Shown here one piece after another: positions 9,567-39,135 of a stretch of DNA of 64,000 nt. The position numbers and the translations under genes were made by a program. The DNA is taken from NCBI GenBank assembly GCA_015478775.1, contig JADMKP010000010.1, forward strand, positions 422,593 to 486,592, written 5' to 3'. The DNA is from Fermentimonas sp. (GTDB taxonomy: Bacteria > Bacteroidota > Bacteroidia > Bacteroidales > Dysgonomonadaceae). How positions within the stretch are numbered: position 1 is the stretch's first letter; each line of letters opens with the position of its first letter. A model generated the notes under the pieces. It was not told the origin of the DNA and did not search any database. It was given only the letters and a program-made list of their open reading frames with translations.

Positions 9567-11951
9567 TTAATAACCATAACCATACTTTTTACCTAAAGCA
9601 TATCGATAATCAGTACCGTTGAGGTCTACATAATTAAGTATGAAATACATATTATTTAATTTATTATCTTGAAAATATTTATTGGCATCTTCAATATATT
9701 TTTTAGGAGTATAACCTGAACGTGTTACATAAAGACTTACATCAGCTAAACGGTTAAGCAAAAAACTATCTGAAACCAATCCAATAGGCGGTGTATCAAT
9801 AAATATATAATCATACTCTCCTCTTAATTTTTTTATTAGATCATCGAGAACAGATTTTGCTAATAATTCATTTGGATTTGGTGGTATAGCACCTGCGGTT
9901 ATTATTGAAAGATTAGGATGAATTCCTGAAGGTTTTATTAATTCACTCATTTCGAGAAATCCTGATAAATAAAGTGTAATTCCTTGTTTGTTTTCTAATG
10001 TAAGTTCTTTAGCAAGTTTTGGTTTTCTAATATCAAGCTCTACAACAATTACTTTTTTATCGAGCAATGCCAGACTTAATGCAAGATTTAGTGAAATAAA
10101 TGATTTTCCTTCTCCGCTAATACTGGATAGCATATTGACAACTTTCTTCTCCTTACCATCGATTACGAAAAGTAGATTTGCTCTTAAAAGACGAATCATT
10201 TCATTAAAACTATCGTTACTGTTTTCTTTTACTGCAACACCATGTATCTTTTCGCTTTTGGGTATTTCTCCTAGAACAGGAATAGAAGAAATATCTTCAA
10301 GATCATCTTTTGTATCAATTTGATAACGAAGTAAATCTTTTATTTTTATTGCAATTATTGGTAAAACAACACCCACAAAAAGTGCAATTAAAAGTATTAG
10401 TTTAATACTAGGCCAAACCACACCCATTACACTAATATTATCTATTATTTTAGAGTTTGGTTCTACACTCGTCATATTCATAAATCTCTCTTCCTTTTTT
10501 TGAAGTAGATAGAGAAACAACTCCTCTTTTATGTCTTGTTGTCTCATTAAATCTGAGAAAACTCTTTCTTGTTGCGGAATTGCTCTAACTTTTGCATTAT
10601 TTCTAGAGTATTCGGTATTTATATCTCTTAGTTGAATTTCCAGATTGTTTTTTTCGTTGCGTAAACCCGCAACAACTGAACTATAAGTGGTTTGTAACTG
10701 GTTATTGAGGTCGATCATCGATAGGTTACTGCTAGAAGCAATACGAGATAGTCGGTTTCTCTCAATAACTAAATTATTATATGTACTTATTTGACTGTTA
10801 AGTATAGGACTATTTATACCTGAATTTGCAGGTATCTGTTGATTTACACCGTTGAGTTCTACAAAATTAAGCACATCTGAAATAATACTGTATTGAGATT
10901 CAATATTCATCCTCCTCTGACCTATATTGGCTAACTGAGAGTTATATAATTCACCTTGAGCAGAGATATTTGTAAGTCCTTGTGATTGTCTGAAATTTTG
11001 TGTTTCGTCTTCAACTTGGGAAAGTTCTGCACTTAAGTTTGAAATATGTTTTTCGATCATTTGAGAAGTTTCACTAGCAAGTTTTTGCTGATCTTTAATA
11101 CCTTTTTCATTATAGGTAATAATATATTCTGATAAAAAATCTTTTCCAAGTTCTATATTTTCTGCTTGAAGAGTTATATTAGCTACAGAGGATGTTTTTG
11201 ATGTTAACTCAATTTCAATTTTACCAAGATAACTATTTGCAACAGTAAGAGGATTAGAAATATATAATTTCATTCTCATATTTTCAACGACGGTAGCTTT
11301 GTTCTTTATTATTTCTAATTTTCCAAAAGGTAAACTTACTGTGTGATCATTCTGTGAAACTATTATATTGAATCTTTCTTTCTCGTATTTACCTGAAAAA
11401 GTAAACAATCCTTTTTCATTTATGAATAAATCTATTTCTATAGGACTATGTAGACTCTTTAGTGTATTCTCGGAAAGAATAATTTTTAGAGGACTTTCAT
11501 CACCATATAACACTGCCGATTTATGATAAAGTAAGTTAAAGATAAGGTTGTCTCCATTACCAATTTCAAAGGGTAAAATTGGTTCCATTTCATAATATGT
11601 TACATATAGACCTAATTTTCTGATAACATCTTCAACAATAAGCGATTTTTTTAATATTTCTACTTCGTTATCTACATTGCTCCTACGAGTAACAACTCCC
11701 ATCTCTTTAAACACATTAAGCTCAGTAACTCCTCCACGCTGATCATCATTGAAGACTATAGAAGTCGCAATTTCATATTTTGGTAAAGTGAAGAATATAT
11801 AACTAAAAGCAAGTGCTAATGTGAGAAAAACACATAAGACAAACCATTTCCAATAGGAAAGGTATTTAAGTAGAATGGCTAATATATTTATAGGTTTTTC
11901 AGCCATTAGTACAAACTCTTCTTCAACATTCGATATTTTATTCAATGTCAT
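9567..11951 (-). CDS. wzc: Wzc-like polysaccharide co-polymerase with BY-kinase domain
   Basis: This 794-residue protein has a Wzz-like N-terminal half with membrane segments near residues 35-55 and 510-535. Between them is a periplasmic region with long coiled coils (about 270-480). The C-terminal cytoplasmic kinase carries the Walker A motif SISGEGKSFISL, Walker A' VVVELDIRKPKL and a Walker B-type DYIFIDTPP. The last residues are a tyrosine cluster (DYRYALGKKYGYGY), the autophosphorylation site of bacterial tyrosine kinases. It controls chain length and export together with Wza, encoded just upstream, at the inner membrane. Confidence 0.95.
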   Translation of the reverse strand: MTLNKISNVEEEFVLMAEKPINILAILLKYLSYWKWFVLCVFLTLALAFSYIFFTLPKYEIATSIVFNDDQRGGVTELNVFKEMGVVTRRSNVDNEVEILKKSLIVEDVIRKLGLYVTYYEMEPILPFEIGNGDNLIFNLLYHKSAVLYGDESPLKIILSENTLKSLHSPIEIDLFINEKGLFTFSGKYEKERFNIIVSQNDHTVSLPFGKLEIIKNKATVVENMRMKLYISNPLTVANSYLGKIEIELTSKTSSVANITLQAENIELGKDFLSEYIITYNEKGIKDQQKLASETSQMIEKHISNLSAELSQVEDETQNFRQSQGLTNISAQGELYNSQLANIGQRRMNIESQYSIISDVLNFVELNGVNQQIPANSGINSPILNSQISTYNNLVIERNRLSRIASSSNLSMIDLNNQLQTTYSSVVAGLRNEKNNLEIQLRDINTEYSRNNAKVRAIPQQERVFSDLMRQQDIKEELFLYLLQKKEERFMNMTSVEPNSKIIDNISVMGVVWPSIKLILLIALFVGVVLPIIAIKIKDLLRYQIDTKDDLEDISSIPVLGEIPKSEKIHGVAVKENSNDSFNEMIRLLRANLLFVIDGKEKKVVNMLSSISGEGKSFISLNLALSLALLDKKVIVVELDIRKPKLAKELTLENKQGITLYLSGFLEMSELIKPSGIHPNLSIITAGAIPPNPNELLAKSVLDDLIKKLRGEYDYIFIDTPPIGLVSDSFLLNRLADVSLYVTRSGYTPKKYIEDANKYFQDNKLNNMYFILNYVDLNGTDYRYALGKKYGYGY

Positions 11952-11977: not shown

Positions 11978-12778
11978 TTAGCGTGTCAAACCGAAAATAG
12001 TAGTTGCCAATGTAGCTAGTGATATCAATACACCTAGAGTTGATATTCTAAATGACTCAGCTGCTCCAAATTTAGATGAATTAGCTTTTGCTTGATTTGG
12101 TTCTACATAAATCACGTCATTTTGCTCCAAGAAAAAAGCAGGTGAAGTAAATACATTTTTATCATTGAGATTGACTGTATATATCAATCTTTCACCATTT
12201 ATTTCTTCTCTTATGACTTTTATATTATCACGACGACCATATATTGTTAAATCACCGGCCATAGACAAGCCCTCCAGTATAGTCATTCTTTCATTTTCTG
12301 TTCTAAATTGTCCTGGACGATTTACCTCACCCAAAACATTTACTGAATAATTCACTATCCTAATTGTAATTATAGGCAGTTCTTCAATAAAATAAGGAGT
12401 TAATTTTTCTTCAATCAATTCTTTTAATTCTTTGGTGCTTAGCCCCATGACTTGGATAGTTCCAAGAGAAGGGAAATTGATATTACCATCCTCATCTACT
12501 AAATAATTCTGTAGCATTGGTTGTGATTGTATATAACCAATGTTGGTATTAAGTTGAGGAGCTATGAGGTTGTACCTTCTAGATGCTTCTGGTTCGCTAC
12601 TTACAACACTTATTATAAGAAGATCGTTAGGTTTAATTTGAGCATCGTAATCAACAGGTATTATCCGTGTTGGCTGAGTACTAACTTGTTGGAAATAGGC
12701 AATATTTTTCACTGGAGTACACGAAAAAATAATGAACGTAAAAACCCATAAGTAAAATGCTTTCTTCATTTTTAACAT
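11978..12778 (-). CDS. wza: Wza-like polysaccharide export lipoprotein
   Basis: This is an outer membrane polysaccharide export protein of the Poly_export/SLBB type. A lipoprotein signal (MLKMKKAFYLW...IIFSC) ends in a cysteine, followed by YDAQIKPNDLLIISV, the Poly_export opening. An SLBB repeat region follows (INVLGEVNRPGQFRTE-like, residues about 165-230), and the C-terminus has one hydrophobic helix. I chose 12778 (12769 is also possible); the frame extends to 12847 but those residues precede the signal peptide. It is the first gene of the capsule operon. Its promoter lies about 150 bases upstream. Confidence 0.92.
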   Translation of the reverse strand: MLKMKKAFYLWVFTFIIFSCTPVKNIAYFQQVSTQPTRIIPVDYDAQIKPNDLLIISVVSSEPEASRRYNLIAPQLNTNIGYIQSQPMLQNYLVDEDGNINFPSLGTIQVMGLSTKELKELIEEKLTPYFIEELPIITIRIVNYSVNVLGEVNRPGQFRTENERMTILEGLSMAGDLTIYGRRDNIKVIREEINGERLIYTVNLNDKNVFTSPAFFLEQNDVIYVEPNQAKANSSKFGAAESFRISTLGVLISLATLATTIFGLTR

Positions 12779-12903
12779 ATTTTTAATATCCAAGTATATA
12801 GATGACATTTTAATTTCATATATGATATATAAACTCATAATACGCACTTATCTAAAATACAGTATGAAAAATGCAAAATAAAATTCTGCGACACCTTAAT
12901 AAT

Positions 12904-12922
12904 CTTAACTAATTTAGTTAAG
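12904..12922. repeat. Palindrome at predicted start of capsule transcript
   Basis: CTTAACTAATTTAGTTAAG is a 9+1+9 inverted repeat. It lies 5 bases beyond the minus-strand TAnnTTTG box, so it would overlap or immediately follow the transcription start. A near copy occupies the same place in the second operon promoter (17076-17092). It could be an operator, or a hairpin at the 5' end of the leader RNA. Confidence 0.6.
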
Positions 12923-12927
12923 TGCAG

Positions 12928-12984
12928 CAAATATATGCAGCTCCACACATATTTCAAGAATATTTTTGCTTACATAATATTACA
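12928..12984 (-). promoter_or_regulatory. Capsule operon promoter with TGTAA direct repeat
   Basis: On the minus strand there is a TATATTTG -7 box (12928-12935), a TTG at 12955-12957 with a 19-base spacer, and 12 bases further upstream a direct repeat TGTAA-N5-TGTAA (12970-12984). The -7 box matches the Bacteroidetes consensus TAnnTTTG exactly. The repeat centre is about 55 bases before the predicted start, a good place for an activator. The same arrangement recurs at 14656, 17099 and 18054. Confidence 0.72.
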
Positions 12985-13371
12985 TTCTTGTTTAGTATTT
13001 GTTTATGATTGTTTGCAAGCAATGGTTTGAACTAAACACATTTTTAAAACTGTTCTAAATAGTGAATTTATCATAGTTAACTCAATATAATTCTTTATAA
13101 TTTGAACAAAATAGAAGCTATTTAATTGTTCTTTAGAGTGATATTGTAAATTAAATGTAGTATTTTTATAAAACAATCAATAATTGAACAAGCTACATTG
13201 AAAGGATTTACTTCTCATCCGAATTTAAATTATTCAAAATTTCATCGACCACTCAGGATTAATTCAAATCAATATAGCTACATAATAACATTTTTAATAA
13301 CGTCTTGTTTCAATTCATTTTATGATTTGTAATGAGACACAAATAAACAAACTACAATACATTTTTAAATT

Positions 13372-13821
13372 ATGAAACAGTTAATATTTTTATTAGGGTT
13401 CATTGCCCTAGGAGTTTTTGCGTCTTGCGAGAGAGATTCAACAAGTCTTGAACTTCCCAATACAGTTAAAGTTGATGGTTTATGGGAAGTAATTGCTTAC
13501 AACGATTCTATGGCAATTTCAACACCATTTTCTATTCAAACATTGACTAGGGAAAATTCAATGGGGAGAGACTCTTTAGTAATTAAAGATTCACAGAATG
13601 AATTTTGGAACTTTCAAGTTAGTTCAGCTGTGAACAAAAAACTGGGTGCGTTTGAAACTGAATTATCTTCATGTGAAGTCTGTGAAGAACAAATAGGTAT
13701 AATTGTATCTAATGGAAAAATTATCAATAATGATAGTATTCATTTCGAAATAAAATTTGAGGACGACGAAACTCCTTTTGCAAACAATTACATAATAAAA
13801 GGTCGTCGTGTAAAAGGATAA
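13372..13821 (+). CDS. Small lipoprotein of unknown function
   Basis: This 149-residue protein opens MKQLIFLLGFIALGVFASC, a lipoprotein signal with cysteine at residue 19. The mature part has a lipocalin-like feel (VDGLWEVIAYND, later a KNEFWNFQV-type strand and NYIIKGRRVKG end), but I do not recognise a family. It is the only plus-strand gene among the polysaccharide genes and is convergent with the first PAS-LuxR regulator gene, 30 bases away. A pair of cysteines (CEVCEE) could bind metal or form a disulfide. Confidence 0.75.
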   Translation: MKQLIFLLGFIALGVFASCERDSTSLELPNTVKVDGLWEVIAYNDSMAISTPFSIQTLTRENSMGRDSLVIKDSQNEFWNFQVSSAVNKKLGAFETELSSCEVCEEQIGIIVSNGKIINNDSIHFEIKFEDDETPFANNYIIKGRRVKG

Positions 13822-13823
13822 TT

Positions 13824-13843
13824 AAAATAAATCATTTTATTTT
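13824..13843. terminator. Possible bidirectional AT hairpin
   Basis: An 8-base inverted repeat, AAAATAAA / TTTATTTT, with loop TCAT sits exactly between the convergent lipoprotein and regulator genes. It has A and T runs on both sides. The stem is all A-T and therefore weak, so its role as terminator is plausible but unsure. Confidence 0.35.
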
Positions 13844-13851
13844 CACTTTAA

Positions 13852-14631
13852 CTATTTAACTAACTTACTGACGACTAAATCTTTTAGTGTGTCAACTAAT
13901 TGTTTTTTATTAAGTATATCAAGTTTTCTATTAATGCGATGAATTGTTACAAAAACAGAATCTAAAGTTCTGTTAGTAATTGAAGCTATATCCTTACTAT
14001 CCATATCATTTACAAGTAATCCACAAAGTATTACTTCACGATTGGATAGTAATGGAAATGCTTTTTGAATAATTTTTAACTCTTTCTCATAATAAACCAA
14101 GTCATCCAAGGTTAACTGCTGATTGCTCTCTTCTCTAAAATATTTCTTCATAACATTATCTAACATTGTCTTTCCAAAACTATTAAGATATGGCTTGAGT
14201 TTTGCGACTTCATCTCTTATTAAATATAGTGATGATATTGAAGCTACTAAATATTTTTCAGATGCTTTTGAGAAATGGATTAAGAATATCATTCCCAATT
14301 TTAGATTATGTATTCGAGACAATGAAAAATTAATGATTTCGTGTTTACCATTGAAAAGAACAATGTGTACTTTATTATCAATAACAATATCTTTTTCTAT
14401 TTTTTTAATTATATCATCTATGTAGGGATTAATTTGCTTCCATCGAACCAAATTAAAAACCTCACCTTCTTTCATTTCTAAAATTTCATATGCTTTATTA
14501 TTTAAAATGACTTCTAAACTATTTGAAAAGAATAGTGCAGTTGCGAAAGGAATTTCGTTAATATTGACTACGATATTCTCATCGGATTGATATTTCTTAT
14601 CAACTCCAATCTGAATTCTTTGGGTACGCAT
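13852..14631 (-). CDS. PAS-LuxR family transcriptional regulator 1
   Basis: This 259-residue protein has an N-terminal PAS-like domain (about 20-130; EIPFATALFFSN, VILNNKAYEILEM, GKHEIINFSLSRI), a linking helical region, and a C-terminal LuxR-type helix-turn-helix (about 190-250; LSNREVILCGLLV, SKDIASITNRTLDSVFVTIHRINRKL). It has no receiver domain, so it should sense a ligand or partner through PAS. A paralog lies at 17235-18026; over a 62-residue stretch of the DNA-binding domain about 44 residues are identical. Both genes have a promoter with a TGTAA direct repeat, the same box as the polysaccharide operons, which suggests self-control and control of the neighbours. Confidence 0.85.
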   Translation of the reverse strand: MRTQRIQIGVDKKYQSDENIVVNINEIPFATALFFSNSLEVILNNKAYEILEMKEGEVFNLVRWKQINPYIDDIIKKIEKDIVIDNKVHIVLFNGKHEIINFSLSRIHNLKLGMIFLIHFSKASEKYLVASISSLYLIRDEVAKLKPYLNSFGKTMLDNVMKKYFREESNQQLTLDDLVYYEKELKIIQKAFPLLSNREVILCGLLVNDMDSKDIASITNRTLDSVFVTIHRINRKLDILNKKQLVDTLKDLVVSKLVK

Positions 14632-14655
14632 TGTTTTAATTTTTAAAATGTGTCA

Positions 14656-14721
14656 CAAATATATAATAAATGAAGATATATAAATGATAGTAAAGTAATA
14701 GTATGCTTACAAAATCTTACA
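14656..14721 (-). promoter_or_regulatory. Promoter of regulator 1 with TGTAA direct repeat
   Basis: The minus strand has TATATTTG at 14656-14663 and a TGTAA-N5-TGTAA repeat at 14707-14721. The start codon is only about 18 bases after the predicted transcript start. There is no good -33 box, as expected for an activator-dependent promoter. The repeat is 51 bases from the -7 box, ten (one helical turn) more than in the operon promoters. The regulator 2 promoter has the same distance and an identical TGTCACAAATATATA context (plus strand: TCACAAATATATA). Confidence 0.65.
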
Positions 14722-14913
14722 CTATTTTGACTTCATTCATTCTGATTTACTAAAAATAATGCAAAATAAAGATCTCAAATTTCATTTAAGAGAAACTTTA
14801 TTTTATTTACACTTAAACTACTTTGTACTGTATTACAAACAAATAATTCTAAATCATATTCGTTACAATTCTTACAAAATATTGTTCTTAACAAAAAATA
14901 GTACTTTATAATT

Positions 14914-15534
14914 TTATTTGGTACTCCTTATATAATGAGCTGGATTTCCAGCCCAAATTTCATTTTCAGGAATACTTCTAGTAACAACAGAACACGCTCC
15001 TATTATTGAGTTGTTGCCTACACTTACCCCTTTTAATATAGTGGTATGTGCTCCAATAAAGACATTGTTTCCTATTATAACAGGCTTACGCATAGTATTT
15101 GTTGAATCGAACTCTTTTAATTTTCTAATTTCAGGATTTAATGAGTGAAAGTCAGTATCATAAATACATACCCCACCTCCAATTTTTACATTATTACCAA
15201 TTTTTATACTTATGGCAGAAAAAAGTGTAGTTGAACTTATTCCTACATTATCTCCAATTATTAGTTTAGCATTATTATCAACAAATAAAATACATCTTTG
15301 TACTCTTCCAATAGGATTACCTCGAAGGTTATTATTCATCGAAAAATTATTACCTATTATACACTTTCCTTTTGGTGCTACAGACACAAAGGGTACTCCA
15401 TTGGTATTTATCTTTTTAAAATCGACATTATTACCTTTAAGTATAATAATAGAAAGTATAAAGTTAATTTTACTTTTAAAATATCTATTGATATATCTAA
15501 CTGATTTAAAAACTATAGGGAAATAATATTTCAT
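14914..15534 (-). CDS. Left-handed beta-helix O-acetyltransferase
   Basis: This 206-residue protein has hexapeptide repeats in its second half: LIIGDNVGISS, IKIGNNVKIGGGVCIYDTDFHSL, VIIGNNVFIGAHTTILKGVSVGNNSIIGACSVVT and the closing ENEIWAGNPAHYI. The D-x-H (TDFHSL) and GNPA motifs are typical of the NodL/LacA/CysE acetyltransferase group that moves acetyl from acetyl-CoA to a sugar hydroxyl. It overlaps the upstream glycosyltransferase by 4 bases, so the two are one unit. A probable job is acetylating the polysaccharide or its precursor. Confidence 0.88.
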   Translation of the reverse strand: MKYYFPIVFKSVRYINRYFKSKINFILSIIILKGNNVDFKKINTNGVPFVSVAPKGKCIIGNNFSMNNNLRGNPIGRVQRCILFVDNNAKLIIGDNVGISSTTLFSAISIKIGNNVKIGGGVCIYDTDFHSLNPEIRKLKEFDSTNTMRKPVIIGNNVFIGAHTTILKGVSVGNNSIIGACSVVTRSIPENEIWAGNPAHYIRSTK

Positions 15535-16790
15535 CTTTTGCGAATAATGTTACTGTAAATATCTAATTGAGTTTTAAGAACTTTATTCTGATCATTTCTT
15601 TTAAATGCCTTTTTCCTAGCCTCTAAAGATAAAATATCTGCCAATTCAGGATTTGTAATGATCTTTTCAATATTTCTTGCACAGTCCCAATGATCTCCTG
15701 ATGGGAAATAAAGTGCCGATATACCATGTTCAGCTAATTGAGGCATAGCACCAGAAAATGAAGCTACCGTAGGAACACCCACCATCATAGACTCTGCCAT
15801 AAATAAACAATAAGTTTCAATATAAGAAGGAACCACAACAACTGATGATTTATGCATTTCTTTAATAATCTCATCAGAATTCAACATACCAAGCCATGTA
15901 ATTGAATCGGTCACACCTAGATTTTTTGCTTTTTTTAATAGCCAACCGGTATAACCGTCTCTTATAATTCCATACTTCCTATTAATTTGAATACCTCCTC
16001 CAATTTTCAGTTTTATATTGGGATATTTTTTTTTCAGGATTGCCAATGCTTCTATAACAACATGCAATCCTTTATAAGGTATTGCACCCGAGCATGATGT
16101 AAAAACACTCATTTGATTGTTATTTCCTGATCTTTTCCATGCAGATGTTTCACTAAATTCCCTTCGTAACATTATTCCAGTTTGAAAAATAGAACTTGAA
16201 TTATTTACACTTTTTATGATAGAATGTACCCAATCTGACTGAACAGATATATTTTCAACTTCACGTAGTAATCTCAATTCATGTTTCCCTCTTTTTTTAT
16301 ATCTTCTTCTAATAAAATAAGGATGATATTTAGGTTTTAGAATTTCCTTTAAATCAATGCATTTAATTAAATCCATAAAGTTTAGGCCACCATAATAAAA
16401 TTTCACATAAGCAAATAAGAGACCTTGAATATCTAATAACACAGGAGTTTCAAGTTTTGCTTCACTTACTACAAATGCAAACCCATTTTCAGTACCCCAT
16501 ATATGAATTAAATCGGGCTGAATTTCATTGTTAATTTTTTTTACGAAAGATAGAAGGTTTTTAGAACCCCTATGGTATATTTTACGTTCTTTATGGGGTA
16601 TGATCCATTGAGTTATATTTTTAGAGTTTTTTTTTGTTATAGATTTTACATTTCCATAAGTCACATTATATAGCTCAATGTTTTCCATTTCTGCTAAAGC
16701 ATTTCCCATAGATATCAACCAGGTTCCTGTAGTTTTAATTTTTTCGTCTGAAAACAGAGCTGAACAAAACCAAATTATTTTTTTCTTCAT
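15531..16790 (-). CDS. Glycosyltransferase, family 4-like (GT-B)
   Basis: This is a 419-residue GT-B enzyme. The opening KKKIIWFCSALFSDEK and the LIHIWGTENGFAFV stretch belong to the acceptor domain. The C-terminal donor domain shows SGAIPYKGLHVVIEALAIL, LKIGGGIQINRKYGI and SSVVVVPSYIETYCLFMAESMMVGVPTVAS, the EX7E region of GT4. It heads a two-gene unit with the O-acetyltransferase. Its promoter lies about 300 bases upstream with a long leader. The substrate is unknown. Confidence 0.9.
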   Translation of the reverse strand: MKKKIIWFCSALFSDEKIKTTGTWLISMGNALAEMENIELYNVTYGNVKSITKKNSKNITQWIIPHKERKIYHRGSKNLLSFVKKINNEIQPDLIHIWGTENGFAFVVSEAKLETPVLLDIQGLLFAYVKFYYGGLNFMDLIKCIDLKEILKPKYHPYFIRRRYKKRGKHELRLLREVENISVQSDWVHSIIKSVNNSSSIFQTGIMLRREFSETSAWKRSGNNNQMSVFTSCSGAIPYKGLHVVIEALAILKKKYPNIKLKIGGGIQINRKYGIIRDGYTGWLLKKAKNLGVTDSITWLGMLNSDEIIKEMHKSSVVVVPSYIETYCLFMAESMMVGVPTVASFSGAMPQLAEHGISALYFPSGDHWDCARNIEKIITNPELADILSLEARKKAFKRNDQNKVLKTQLDIYSNIIRKR

Positions 16791-17075
16791 ATTATAATGA
16801 CTTTGTTATTTTTAGTTTACTCAAGATAAGCGTGAGTTTACAACCTACACCATTTGAAAGCTACCCCTTTAAGGAAAATCTTTGATTAGACTGCTAAATT
16901 AGTTATTTATGACAAATTGGGAGGGCTATACAAGTAGGGAAGGCTACAATTCATGTTCATATAAATTAAATTGATAAATATATAAGGACGCCTAAGAAAA
17001 TGCACATAAAAGACAATGAAATTAATATAAACATCTATTTAAAAAATATTTTGACTATCCCGCAACTCAATATTA

Positions 17076-17092
17076 TTAACTAGATTAGTTAA
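17076..17092. repeat. Palindrome at predicted start of second polysaccharide transcript
   Basis: TTAACTAGATTAGTTAA is a 7+3+7 inverted repeat. It sits 6 bases beyond the -7 box, just as the related palindrome at 12904-12922 does in the capsule promoter. It is absent from the two regulator promoters. Confidence 0.6.
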
Positions 17093-17098
17093 GGATAG

Positions 17099-17154
17099 CA
17101 AATATAGAATTCAATAACTGAAGACAATAATTATTTTGCTTACATAATATTACA
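17099..17154 (-). promoter_or_regulatory. Promoter of second polysaccharide unit with TGTAA direct repeat
   Basis: The minus strand shows TATATTTG (17099-17106), TTG at 17125-17127 (18-base spacer) and a TGTAA-N5-TGTAA repeat at 17140-17154. The 18-base string GCTTACATAATATTACAT is identical to the one in the capsule promoter, and the distance from TTG to repeat is the same. The flanking sequences differ, so the shared parts look functionally kept. Confidence 0.72.
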
Positions 17155-17234
17155 TTGGAAAATAAAATGATGTTTTTTAGAAGATAAAACTATTTATGAA
17201 ACTCAATTAGAATAAAATCTTTTCATAAAATTAT

Positions 17235-18026
17235 TCAATATTTTTTTTGTTCAATGACATTAGAATTAAAAATAACTTCTTTAAGGGTTTCAGTAAGTTT
17301 TTTTTTATTATTTAAATTTAGTTTTTTGTTAATCCTATGTATAGAAACAAAAACAGAATCAATCGTTCTATTTGTTATCGAGGCTATATCTTTAGTTTCC
17401 ATATTATTTATAAGTAAACCGCATAATATAACTTCTCTGTGAGATAAAGCAGGAAAAGCTCTTTGAATTTCACGTAATTCCTTTTTATAGTAAACAATAT
17501 CATCGAGCGTAAGTTGCTGGTTATCATCTCTAAAGTATTTCTTCATCAAAGATTCAACCATATTTCTCCCTGTTCTATTAAGATAAGGTTTTAGCTTAGA
17601 AATTTCATCCTTGATATTATAAAGTGATGAAATAGAAGCAGTTGAATATTTTTCAATTGATTTAGTGAAATTAAGAATATAGATATTATTTAAATACGTA
17701 TTTTTTATATGAGCCATTGAGAAATTTATTATCTCGTGTTTTCCATTTGGCAAAACAATGTGTTCTTTCTGATTCGAAATAATATCTTCTTTCCCATTAA
17801 TGATTATATCAGTGAAATTATTGTTATTCCTCTTCCATGATTCAATATCAAATGGTTCACCTACTTTTAATCCCAAACATTCGTAGGCACGGTCATTTAA
17901 AATTACTCTTTTAGATTCTAGAAAAAAAATAGCAGTTGGAAAGGGAATTTCCTCAATACCTACTATTATTTTTTCTTGCAAATGAACAAACTTGTCCAAT
18001 TGAATTTCAACATTTTGAGAATTCAT
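17235..18026 (-). CDS. PAS-LuxR family transcriptional regulator 2
   Basis: This 263-residue paralog of the regulator at 13852-14631 has the same plan: a PAS-like N-terminus (EEIPFPTAIFFLESKRVILNDRAYECLGL, GKHEIINFSMAHI), a helical linker (about 140-190; LKPYLNRTGRNMVESLMKKYFRD) and a LuxR-type helix-turn-helix (LSHREVILCGLLI, TKDIASITNRTIDSVFVSIHRINKKL). It lies just upstream of the glycosyltransferase/acetyltransferase unit, in the same orientation. The DNA-binding helices of the two paralogs are nearly the same while the PAS parts differ more. This suggests that both read one box but answer to different signals. Confidence 0.85.
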   Translation of the reverse strand: MNSQNVEIQLDKFVHLQEKIIVGIEEIPFPTAIFFLESKRVILNDRAYECLGLKVGEPFDIESWKRNNNNFTDIIINGKEDIISNQKEHIVLPNGKHEIINFSMAHIKNTYLNNIYILNFTKSIEKYSTASISSLYNIKDEISKLKPYLNRTGRNMVESLMKKYFRDDNQQLTLDDIVYYKKELREIQRAFPALSHREVILCGLLINNMETKDIASITNRTIDSVFVSIHRINKKLNLNNKKKLTETLKEVIFNSNVIEQKKY

Positions 18027-18053
18027 CTTACGCAGTGATTTTAGAATTTGTCA

Positions 18054-18119
18054 CAAATATATAAATTCTTGTTTATTTTACTACAATTTTATTTATAATA
18101 AAACTTACAAAACCTTACA
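18054..18119 (-). promoter_or_regulatory. Promoter of regulator 2 with TGTAA direct repeat
   Basis: The minus strand has TATATTTG at 18054-18061 and TGTAA-N5-TGTAA at 18105-18119, 51 bases apart exactly as for regulator 1. The predicted leader is about 20 bases. No strong -33 box is seen. Confidence 0.65.
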
Positions 18120-18326
18120 AATAATTTCACTTAGTCCGCTAACTAGTTAGTTATGAGGCATAAGACTAGAATCAATTTTATTCACTAAATTTAATATGGT
18201 TACTTAAAATTACAGAAAATAATCCAATACTACTTATAATAGTTTCAATTATCAAAAGTCGTTAAATGTAGATAAAATGTTATTTATAGAGGAGGTGATT
18301 AAATTGTATTAGTGATTATGTAAAAA

Positions 18327-18358
18327 ATCCGATAGGAAGCTTAGAACTCCTATCGGAT
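18327..18358 (-). terminator. Rho-independent terminator of rpsP
   Basis: A perfect 11-base stem (ATCCGATAGGA / TCCTATCGGAT) with a 10-base loop is followed on the minus strand by six T. It lies about 70 bases after the rpsP stop. Confidence 0.88.
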
Positions 18359-18425
18359 ATAAAATATTTGTCTATTAAACCTTTAAAGGTTTTTGAGAAT
18401 CGGACTATTTTAGTCTAATTAAAAA

Positions 18426-19040
18426 TTATTCCTTATCTCCCTCTGTAACTGTTTCTTCAGAAGAATTATCAGTAACATCAGTCTCTTCTTTCTCAACAGA
18501 AATCTCTTCAGCTTCTGTTGTCACTTCAGTAGAGATTTCTTCTTCAACAACTTCAACCACTGGTGCATTTGCAGCTTCTTCTTCAGCTTTCTTTTTAGCC
18601 AGAGCTGCGGCTCTTGCTTTATTTACTTCTTTCTCTGCATCTAAACTAGCTTTTTCGTCAGCACGTCTTTTTTCTTCGTCGCGTGTAACTTCAGATCTTT
18701 CTTCCTGTAGTTTATTACTTTTCCATGCATCGAATCTCTTTTCAGCTTCTGCTTCATCAAACGCACCTTTTGCAACACCTCCTAAAAGATGTTTTTTCAT
18801 CAATACACCCTCGCTTGAAAGTATATTTCTAACAGTATCTGTTGGTTGAGCACCTGTTTGCAGCCAATACAAAGCTTTTTCGAAATCTAAAGTGATTGTA
18901 GCAGGATTTGTGTTCGGATTATAAGATCCTATCCTCTCAATATACTTTCCATCTCGTGGAGCTCTGCTATCTGCAACAATAATCTGGTAGAAGGGATAAT
19001 TTTTGCGTCCTCTTCTCTGTAAACGTAATTTTGTTGCCAT
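18426..19040 (-). CDS. rpsP: 30S ribosomal protein S16 with long C-terminal tail
   Basis: The first 85 residues are a standard S16 ([42 protein letters not shown]-type start, then [30 protein letters not shown]). The full protein has 204 residues against about 80-90 in most bacteria. The extra part is a charged helix rich in Lys, Glu and Ala (about 110-160) and an acidic Glu/Val/Thr tail. Such tails are common in Bacteroidota S16. The gene stands alone with its own promoter (TTTG-N20-TATCTTTG) and a strong terminator. Confidence 0.97.
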
Positions 19041-21109: not shown

Positions 21110-21745
21110 ATGGGAAGATTAAAAGAGGGTATTTTTGGAGGTTTCTCCGGAAAAGTAGGCAATGTTATCGGGTCGTCGTGCCGTGGTGTTGAATATATTA
21201 AGAGCGCACCGGCTAAAATGACTAACCCTAGAACAAAAAGTCAAACTAAACAGCGTAGCAGTTTTATTATTACTCAGAATTTCCTTAGAACTATGATACC
21301 AATCATAAGAATTGGGTTTAAAGATTATGCTATTGATGGGAAAAGTGCTTTTAATGCTGCTATGTCTTACAATATGATTAATGGTATAAAAAAAGTGTTC
21401 GACAGCAATGAGTTGGATTTTGCTAATATACTAATTTCAAGAGGTTCGCTTAGCACTTCACCTGTCATAAATGCTATAGTGACAGATGACTTATTGCAAT
21501 TTGAATGGGACCCTATTCTTAATGAAAATGCAAAATCAACCGATCAGGTAATGGTGATTGCACATAATGCAGCTAAGGGAGAATCGGTTTTTGATGTAAA
21601 TGCTGGTAAACGGAGAAATGCATCTACATACCTAAATATGCTTTCTCATTGGAAAGGTGATGCTATTGAAACTTATTTAGCTTTTAAGGATGAATCAGGA
21701 ACGCTGGTTTCTGATAGTTGTTATACAGGTCAATTTACTATATAA
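21110..21745 (+). CDS. DUF6266 family protein
   Basis: This 211-residue protein opens MGRLKEGIFGGFSGKVGNVIG, the highly conserved start of a Bacteroidota family of unknown function (DUF6266). The N-terminal 60 residues are basic and glycine-rich (RTKSQTKQRSSF). The rest looks like beta strands, ending SGTLVSDSCYTGQFTI. No signal peptide or membrane segment is seen. It is a single gene flanked by remnants and repeats, which fits the patchy spread of the family. Its function is unknown. Confidence 0.8.
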   Translation: MGRLKEGIFGGFSGKVGNVIGSSCRGVEYIKSAPAKMTNPRTKSQTKQRSSFIITQNFLRTMIPIIRIGFKDYAIDGKSAFNAAMSYNMINGIKKVFDSNELDFANILISRGSLSTSPVINAIVTDDLLQFEWDPILNENAKSTDQVMVIAHNAAKGESVFDVNAGKRRNASTYLNMLSHWKGDAIETYLAFKDESGTLVSDSCYTGQFTI

Positions 21746-39000: not shown

Positions 39001-39135
39001 TAAAATCTATCGATAAGATAAAGGTAAATATTTCTTTAGTTTTCGAAAATAAATAAACAGGTTACAATCAGTTACAGGTTGAAATTTTGGGTTATAAAAA
39101 ATAAGTTGACCCATAAATTATTGAGTGCATAAAAA

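What the first reader, a model, noticed from the sequence alone, without database searches (positions are those of the whole stretch)
12904..18119. Four promoters with one shared operator next to twin PAS-LuxR regulators
Every minus-strand unit between 12.8 and 18.1 kb (capsule operon, regulator 1, glycosyltransferase/acetyltransferase unit, regulator 2) has TATATTTG as -7 box and, upstream, a direct repeat TGTAA-N5-TGTAA. The repeat starts 41-42 bases from the -7 box in the two operons and 51 bases in both regulator genes, a difference of one DNA turn. The 18-base GCTTACATAATATTACAT is identical in the two operons although the flanks differ. The regulators have near-identical recognition helices. 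Inference: the PAS-LuxR proteins bind this box, activate the polysaccharide units and control themselves and each other. I know of no description of this box for polysaccharide control in Bacteroidota.
Basis: partly seen in the sequence, partly recalled or inferred. Interest (0 to 1): 0.85.

Follow-up and report, generated by a model that had tools for sequence, protein, structure and literature searches.

The report
Shared switch for surface polysaccharide genes
In the bacterial genus Proteiniphilum one short repeated DNA tag marks the promoters of surface-polysaccharide operons and of a small regulator family that probably reads it, and each of those operons carries a second, unreported palindrome where its RNA should begin.

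Summary
All four units carry TGTAA-N5-TGTAA upstream of TATATTTG; 0 of 200 shuffles of the window give box plus promoter. The one-turn difference is right. Comparison of 39 genomes of the genus (Proteiniphilum, by named matches) shows a regulon: 18 operon-type promoters in 13 genomes (48-49 nt) and 9 regulator promoters with exact boxes (58-59 nt). A third operon-type promoter lies 12 kb outside the window. Regulator and module co-occur (12 both, 25 neither, 1 each alone). Most likely the GerE-type regulators bind the box, autoregulate and activate the operons. Binding, sign and the palindrome's reader are inferred. Against exclusivity: three genomes without the regulator keep the box at a lipoprotein gene, five of 17 regulator genes lack it, and Pfam finds no PAS domain.

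The parts
12970..12984 (-). box TGTAATATTATGTAA of the wza (capsule) operon promoter
   Evidence: same design in 18 operon-type promoters
12928..12935 (-). -7 box TATATTTG of the wza operon, 49 nt from box start
12904..12922 (.). palindrome CTTAACTAAATTAGTTAAG at the presumed transcript start (core TTAACT begins 14 nt after the first base of the -7 box)
17140..17154 (-). box TGTAATATTATGTAA of the glycosyltransferase/acetyltransferase unit
17099..17106 (-). -7 box TATATTTG of that unit, 48 nt from box start
17076..17092 (.). palindrome TTAACTAATCTAGTTAA at the presumed transcript start
14707..14721 (-). box TGTAAGATTTTGTAA of regulator 1
14656..14663 (-). -7 box TATATTTG of regulator 1, 58 nt from box start
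18105..18119 (-). box TGTAAGGTTTTGTAA of regulator 2
18054..18061 (-). -7 box TATATTTG of regulator 2, 58 nt from box start
13852..14631 (-). regulator 1, GerE-like C-terminal HTH, 259 aa
   Evidence: pairs with G016b in the tree (100/97)
17235..18026 (-). regulator 2, GerE-like C-terminal HTH, 263 aa
   Evidence: pairs with G016a in the tree (100/99)
11978..12847 (-). wza-like polysaccharide export protein (Poly_export, SLBB); listed from a GTG, likely real start near 12769 (by eye)
9567..11951 (-). wzc-like chain-length determinant with ATPase domain (Wzz, AAA_31; GNVR below cut-off)
15531..16790 (-). glycosyltransferase group 1
14914..15534 (-). hexapeptide-repeat transferase, presumably an acetyltransferase
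13372..13821 (+). Lipid_bd (PF12888) lipoprotein, convergent with regulator 1; homologue in 13 of the 14 genomes compared

Best explanation
TGTAA-N5-TGTAA is the operator of a small, Proteiniphilum-centred family of GerE/LuxR-type regulators (two copies in this genome). Two HTH units would bind the two TGTAA half-sites head to tail, one helical turn apart, on one DNA face. The operator is centred about 55 bp upstream of the presumed start at the polysaccharide promoters and about 65 bp at the regulators' own promoters, one turn further and so in phase. There it would recruit polymerase to TAnnTTTG promoters without a conserved -33 TTTG. The regulators thus switch on wza and other polysaccharide operons together and control their own genes. 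A second site, the palindrome TTAACT-N5-AGTTAA over the start, adds a further control layer at the operons only. Shown: sequence conservation, fixed positions, co-occurrence, confinement to few genes.
For: Box + -7 in 4 of 4 units, 0 of 200 shuffles. Loose pattern in 39 genus genomes: 56 matches against 5 for the reversed control, of which 18 operon-type (offsets 48-49), 9 regulator-type (58-59), 5 lipoprotein (48, 49, 49, 59, 59), 24 sporadic over 45-61. Box + -7 + TTAACTA: 18 sites in 13 of 101 family genomes, all in this genus, reversed control 0. In the 18 operon promoters the ten columns before the box carry 0.0-0.3 bits and the TGTAA half-sites 1.9 (small-sample corrected); -7 and palindrome are near-invariant. 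A matrix trained on operon boxes alone has its top hit at 58-59 in 11 of 17 regulator promoters with at most 9 of 500 shuffles as good (for G038 the script measured to a wrong -7, it is 59). The one full-length relative in another genus (G083) has GGTAAGAAATTGTAAG, one mismatch in the half-sites, 57 nt from TATTTTTG; such a pair at 57-59 arose in 0 of 2000 shuffles. Module and regulator: 12 genomes both, G016 regulator only, G033 module only, 25 neither, Fisher p 4e-8. Both regulator subtypes carry the box. 12 of 18 modules precede wza and 3 other polysaccharide units.
Against: Five of 17 regulator genes have no recognisable box at the expected place (G001, G004, G014, G016b, G003b); G002's is too degenerate to stand alone (65 of 500 shuffles). 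G083's box scores low on the operon matrix (5.2; maximum 26.0) and its start codon lies 209 nt from the box start, much further than in the genus. G005, G008 and G032 have no member of the family yet keep box + TATATTTG before a lipoprotein gene, so something else may read the box, or it is a relic. G033 keeps module and operon but no regulator was detected (88% complete). Two modules precede collagen-like/OmpA-like genes. Co-occurrence is partly trivial: module and regulator usually share one locus and the genomes are related. Nothing here measures binding or expression or separates activator from repressor.
Confidence: 0.7

Rival explanations
1. The box is read by another factor; the regulators are merely members of its regulon and of the locus, and act elsewhere.
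For: Box + TATATTTG before a lipoprotein gene in G005, G008 and G032, where no member of the regulator family was found; 5 of 17 regulator genes without a box; module without regulator in G033.
Against: The operon-type module is absent from 25 of the 26 genus genomes that lack the regulator and from 62 genomes of other genera in the family. The one distant full-length regulator has a near-box at 57 nt in its own promoter.
Confidence: 0.15
2. The regulators bind the box as repressors, not activators: a silent locus relieved by a signal.
For: The sign cannot be read from sequence; a palindrome over the start site is a typical place for a repressor (inference, and it need not be the same protein).
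Against: The box sits upstream of the promoter, not over it, at two positions one turn apart, and no conserved TTTG -33 motif is seen, which fits activation (inference).
Confidence: 0.12
3. The shared stretches are recent copies of one promoter spread by recombination within the cluster, alike by descent rather than by function.
For: Within the own genome op1 and op2 share blocks of 32 nt (91%) and 44 nt (80%); the beta-helix gene that elsewhere neighbours the wza module lies beside op3 here, so pieces have moved.
Against: Across the genus box, -7 and palindrome persist at fixed distances while the flanks have diverged, also before unrelated genes.
Confidence: 0.03
4. Phase-variable capsule control as in Bacteroides fragilis: invertible promoters plus UpxY-type antitermination.
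For: Same order, capsule-type operons; a second NusG-type gene exists in many genomes of the genus. One short imperfect inverted pair (15 nt, 87%, 17659-17673 and 18122-18136) brackets the regulator 2 promoter, one arm inside its gene.
Against: No inverted pair within 1 kb brackets the op1, op2 or regulator 1 promoter (op3 not examined). wza, not a NusG homologue, is first after 12 of 18 modules. The own second NusG gene is some 370-400 kb away, and such genes occur with and without the module.
Confidence: 0.02

Closest known systems
PAS-LuxR regulators of Streptomyces (PimM/PteF type; review PMC9774167, passages seen)
   Same: Small local regulators with a C-terminal LuxR-type HTH that act on several promoters of one biosynthetic cluster.
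   Different: They bind a 16-bp palindrome CTVGGGAWWTCCCBAG in the -35 region; that site is not above chance in the window (1 match at 3 mismatches, far from this locus; shuffle mean 1.83). Here the box is a direct repeat further upstream, and Pfam finds no PAS family.
DegU, a GerE-type response regulator (PMC9263151, two passages seen)
   Same: GerE HTH; B. subtilis DegU is said to recognise inverted repeats when unphosphorylated and potentially direct repeats when phosphorylated, so both site types at one regulator have a precedent.
   Different: No receiver-domain family was hit here; phylum and targets differ.
Bacteroides CPS control by invertible promoters and UpxY/UpxZ (PMC12632263 and PMC3090145, passages seen)
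   Same: Bacteroidales, TAnnTTTG promoters, several polysaccharide operons under shared control.
   Different: No bracketing inverted repeats at the operon promoters examined, no NusG-type first gene; instead a shared operator and a local HTH regulator.
VpsT and CsgD, LuxR-type matrix regulators (recalled; only a search listing seen)
   Same: LuxR-type regulators that govern matrix production.
   Different: Different phylum, ligands and sites (recalled); no relation tested.

Membership tests
GerE/LuxR-type HTH regulators | GerE (PF00196) HTH domain | tested here: inconclusive
   17 of 17 members hit PF00196, best E 6e-5; the two window proteins score 19.7 and 19.4 bits against a cut-off of 23.5. 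Profile search of PDB sequences: best are a transcriptional regulator (7dwm, E 0.015) and GerE (1fse, E 0.24), both over the HTH only.
PAS-LuxR regulators | N-terminal PAS domain | tested here: not met
   0 of 17 members match a PAS family in Pfam at E<=1.
PAS-LuxR regulators | 16-bp palindromic site CTVGGGAWWTCCCBAG at target promoters | tested here: not met
   1 match at 3 mismatches, at 21273-21288, shuffle mean 1.83
Bacteroides phase-variable CPS loci | promoter bracketed by inverted repeats | tested here: not met
   17 pairs in 12400-18600; within 1 kb none brackets op1, op2 or regulator 1 promoters; one 15-nt 87% pair brackets that of regulator 2 with an arm inside the gene; op3 lies outside the tested stretch
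Bacteroides phase-variable CPS loci | upxY (NusG-like) as first gene | tested here: not met
   first genes are wza or other genes; the own second NusG-type gene is at C10:41537
Bacteroidota housekeeping promoters | -7 element TAnnTTTG | tested here: met
   TATATTTG in all four units; TAnnTTTG in 18 of 18 operon-type promoters
Bacteroidota housekeeping promoters | transcript start a few nt downstream of the -7 element | not testable with these tools
   needs transcript mapping; in B. thetaiotaomicron the motif is centred at -7 and -33 (PMC7366714, passages and one section seen)

The most novel reading that the evidence does not exclude
Each polysaccharide promoter carries a two-state switch read by one regulator family: the direct repeat upstream for activation, and the palindrome over the start for repression by the same GerE-type protein in its other dimer form, as reported for DegU (inverted against direct repeats). 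Regulator genes have only the direct repeat, so the regulator keeps making itself while the capsule is gated. Alternatively the palindrome is the dedicated target of a still unknown repressor whose sites are these promoters alone.
Probability: 0.15. Interest if true: 0.8.

Novelty: new variant of a known kind. Interest (0 to 1): 0.62.

Why it matters
Capsule and surface-polysaccharide control in Bacteroidales is known mainly from invertible promoters and UpxY/UpxZ. Here is a compact, genus-confined alternative: a regulator family with a defined candidate operator, a one-turn spacing code that separates the operons from the regulators' own genes, and a second element at the start site whose exact form was found at these promoters only in 39 genomes. 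It gives exact, cheap tests in a strain held in a culture collection (Proteiniphilum acetatigenes DSM 18083, named).

Tried and rejected
Set aside: the fifth repeat at 39062-39076 (76 nt from the -7-like box, no palindrome), and two more hits near relatives' loci without the design (one box without a -7, one 1-mismatch box with a -7 at 51). RNA reading of the palindrome: 8 pairs in 18 leaders, 0 with compensatory change, 2 with breaks, so the sequence rather than the hairpin seems kept, though the hairpin is predicted in most single folds. Rfam: 14 of the 16 palindrome loci given, no match over a gathering score, 3 weaker ones to microRNA and snoRNA families. Leader folding beyond the palindrome: tested on 8 of 18 leaders, chosen because they share AARTCAC; 22 pairs, 6 with double changes, covariation term -0.23, too weak to claim; 8 of 18 leaders of 60 nt fold with z below -2. 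NusG-type partner: occurs with and without the module. Invertible promoter. Partner gene for the palindrome: none seen by eye in the clusters printed; genes elsewhere were not compared. With up to 2 mismatches the palindrome is no rarer than chance (33 strand hits against 49 for the reversed control); only the exact form is distinctive. A scan of named genomes with one protein found nothing; with the alignment it gave 9 loci.

Literature: the listings of ten searches (open-licence full texts only) showed no paper on this box or palindrome; neither sequence itself was used as a search term, and subscription papers are not covered.
Full report
WHAT WAS CLAIMED AND WHAT IS THERE. The four minus-strand units at 12.8-18.1 kb (wza operon, regulator 1, glycosyltransferase/acetyltransferase unit, regulator 2) each carry TGTAA-N5-TGTAA upstream of TATATTTG. 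In 200 dinucleotide shuffles of the window no box with TAnnTTTG at 30-46 nt arose, against 4 observed. The identical 18-mer in the two operons is real.

GENOME-WIDE. The window is part of a 2.9-Mb genome. Seventeen exact TGTAA-N5-TGTAA occur against 11 for the reversed control, so the repeat alone is not special. With T...TTTG 30-46 nt downstream only 5 remain (reversed control 1), all on one strand in one 30-kb polysaccharide locus. The fifth lies about 12 kb beyond the window's left edge (L020:7807, minus strand) with box, 49-nt distance, TATATTTG and palindrome intact. It precedes a gene start resembling a nucleotide-sugar dehydrogenase that ends early (by eye), then a group-1 glycosyltransferase.

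THE MISSED ELEMENT. Downstream of TATATTTG both operon promoters of the window carry a palindrome. In the own genome the exact pattern TTAACTAANNTAGTTAA occurs at 3 places, the three operon-type promoters; with up to 2 mismatches it is no rarer than its reversed control (33 against 49 strand hits). In 39 genus genomes TTAACTANNNTAGTTAA occurs at 17 places in 13 genomes; the reversed control has 2 forward and 2 reverse hits, all in one genome. All 17 are at box promoters. An eighteenth module (G003a) has a variant; the core TTAACT-N5-AGTTAA is in 18 of 18 and begins 14 nt after the first base of the -7 box in each. That is where the transcript should begin (inference: in B. thetaiotaomicron the motif is centred at -7 and -33; PMC7366714, passages and one section seen). 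In the printed sequences of the 9 regulator promoters with exact boxes it is absent after the -7.

PHYLOGENETIC FOOTPRINT. The genus is taken to be Proteiniphilum from the names of matching records; two contigs with the same lengths as those of G001 and G014 are P. acetatigenes DSM 18083 and Proteiniphilum sp. X52. In 18 operon-type promoters the distance is 48 (4) or 49 (14); in 9 regulator promoters with exact boxes 58 (3) or 59 (6). In the operon set the ten columns before the box carry 0.0-0.3 bits, the TGTAA half-sites 1.9, and columns between box and -7 mostly below 1.0 with one at 1.6; -7 and palindrome are near-invariant. The last spacer position is A in 18 of 18 operon boxes and T in 8 of 9 regulator boxes. 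A matrix trained on operon boxes only was run on all 17 regulator upstream regions: 11 have their best hit at 58-59 with at most 9 of 500 shuffles as good (for G038 the script measured to a wrong -7; 59), G002 a weak one at 58 (65 of 500), and G001, G004, G014, G016b and G003b none at that place. The loose genus-wide pattern gave 56 matches: 18 operon, 9 regulator, 5 lipoprotein and 24 sporadic; the reversed control gave 5.

REGULATORS. Seventeen full-length members in 13 of 39 genus genomes, one full-length in another genus of the family (G083), two HTH-only matches in two more family genomes, and in a sample of 393 genomes of the order only the own genome at E<=1e-15. The tree pairs regulator 2 with G016a (100/99) and regulator 1 with G016b (100/97), so the two are older than the split of these genomes; 7 of 15 inner forks are unresolved. 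G083, distant in the tree, has GGTAAGAAATTGTAAG 57 nt from TATTTTTG. A half-site match that good arose in 125 of 2000 shuffles of 400 nt, but with TAnnTTTG at 57-59 in 0 of 2000; its matrix score is low (5.2) and the start codon is 209 nt from the box start. Autoregulation through this box may thus be ancestral. The HTH is GerE-like but weak: 17 of 17 hit PF00196, both window proteins below the cut-off. No PAS family is hit.

LINKAGE. Across the 39 genus genomes 12 have both module and regulator, G016 the regulator only (its contig ends about 1 kb after it), G033 the module only, 25 neither; Fisher p 4e-8, with the caveat that the two usually share a locus and the genomes are related. Homologues near the locus in 14 genomes compared: PF12888 lipoprotein 13, beta-helix protein 12, wza 12, wzc 11. 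The usual order is regulator, convergent lipoprotein, beta-helix gene, module, wza; the own genome departs from it, with the beta-helix gene beside the third promoter. Of 18 modules 12 precede wza, 3 precede other units of the cluster (op2, op3, G003a), 2 precede a collagen-like lipoprotein and an OmpA-like gene (labels by eye; Pfam found nothing in the one given), and 1 is cut by its contig end.

EXCEPTIONS. Five lipoprotein genes (G005, G008, G012, G032, G033) have box + TATATTTG without palindrome, at 48, 49, 49, 59 and 59; that homologous promoters differ by one turn supports phasing. But G005, G008 and G032 have no member of the regulator family: at E<=10 only partial matches to much larger proteins appear in G005 and G008 and nothing in G032 or G033. 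Either another protein reads the box, or these are relics. In G033 the gene is missing from the place beside the lipoprotein where most others have it.

MECHANISM. The half-sites start 10 bp apart in the same orientation: two HTHs head to tail on one face (inference). The operator would be centred about 55 bp upstream of the start in operons and 65 in regulators, and no TTTG is conserved in the -33 region: an activator's position (inference). The palindrome is kept as a sequence: of 8 pairs 0 show compensatory change and 2 show breaks, which favours a DNA-binding dimer over an RNA function (inference). GerE-type DegU is reported to use inverted and, potentially, direct repeats in two states (PMC9263151, two passages seen), so one protein reading both sites is possible but untested.

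VERDICT. A real, narrow regulon; ordinary in kind (local HTH regulator with a shared operator) and new in its parts: box, spacing code and start-site palindrome. The listings of ten searches of an open-licence library showed no description of it.

Noticed in passing
L020:7691-7807 (own genome, about 12 kb left of the window): Third complete promoter module before a gene start resembling a nucleotide-sugar dehydrogenase that ends early, then a glycosyltransferase; the divergent beta-helix gene beside it is the usual neighbour of the wza module in other genomes.
   Followed up: partly
window 18035-18054 and other regulator promoters: Dyad GTGA(C)..(G)TCAC directly after the -7 box in several regulator promoters (for example TATATTTGTGACAAATATTAAAAGTCACAG in G038).
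   Followed up: no
L058, L059, L061, L063, L065, L069, L070, L149 leaders: AARTCAC, mostly within AAAAATCACAG, 71-74 nt after the -7 box in 8 of 18 operon leaders; similar letters stand near the start codon of several regulators.
   Followed up: partly
L151:1327 onward (+), L149:7204 leftward (-): Box + -7 + palindrome before a collagen-like (GPKGDKGDKG) lipoprotein and an OmpA-like gene in G017 and G038: the regulon is not only polysaccharide (labels by eye).
   Followed up: partly
L144, L145, L146, L147, L148: A lipoprotein family with the box at 48/49 or 59 nt and no palindrome; in G008 a wza-wzc pair follows it on the same strand.
   Followed up: partly
window 18139-18150 and 18198-18214: Upstream of regulator 2: perfect palindrome CTAACTAGTTAG and a degenerate box TGTAATTTTAAGTAACC.
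   Followed up: no
G000:C10:41537-41821: A second NusG-type gene in the own genome and in many genus genomes, far from this locus.
   Followed up: no
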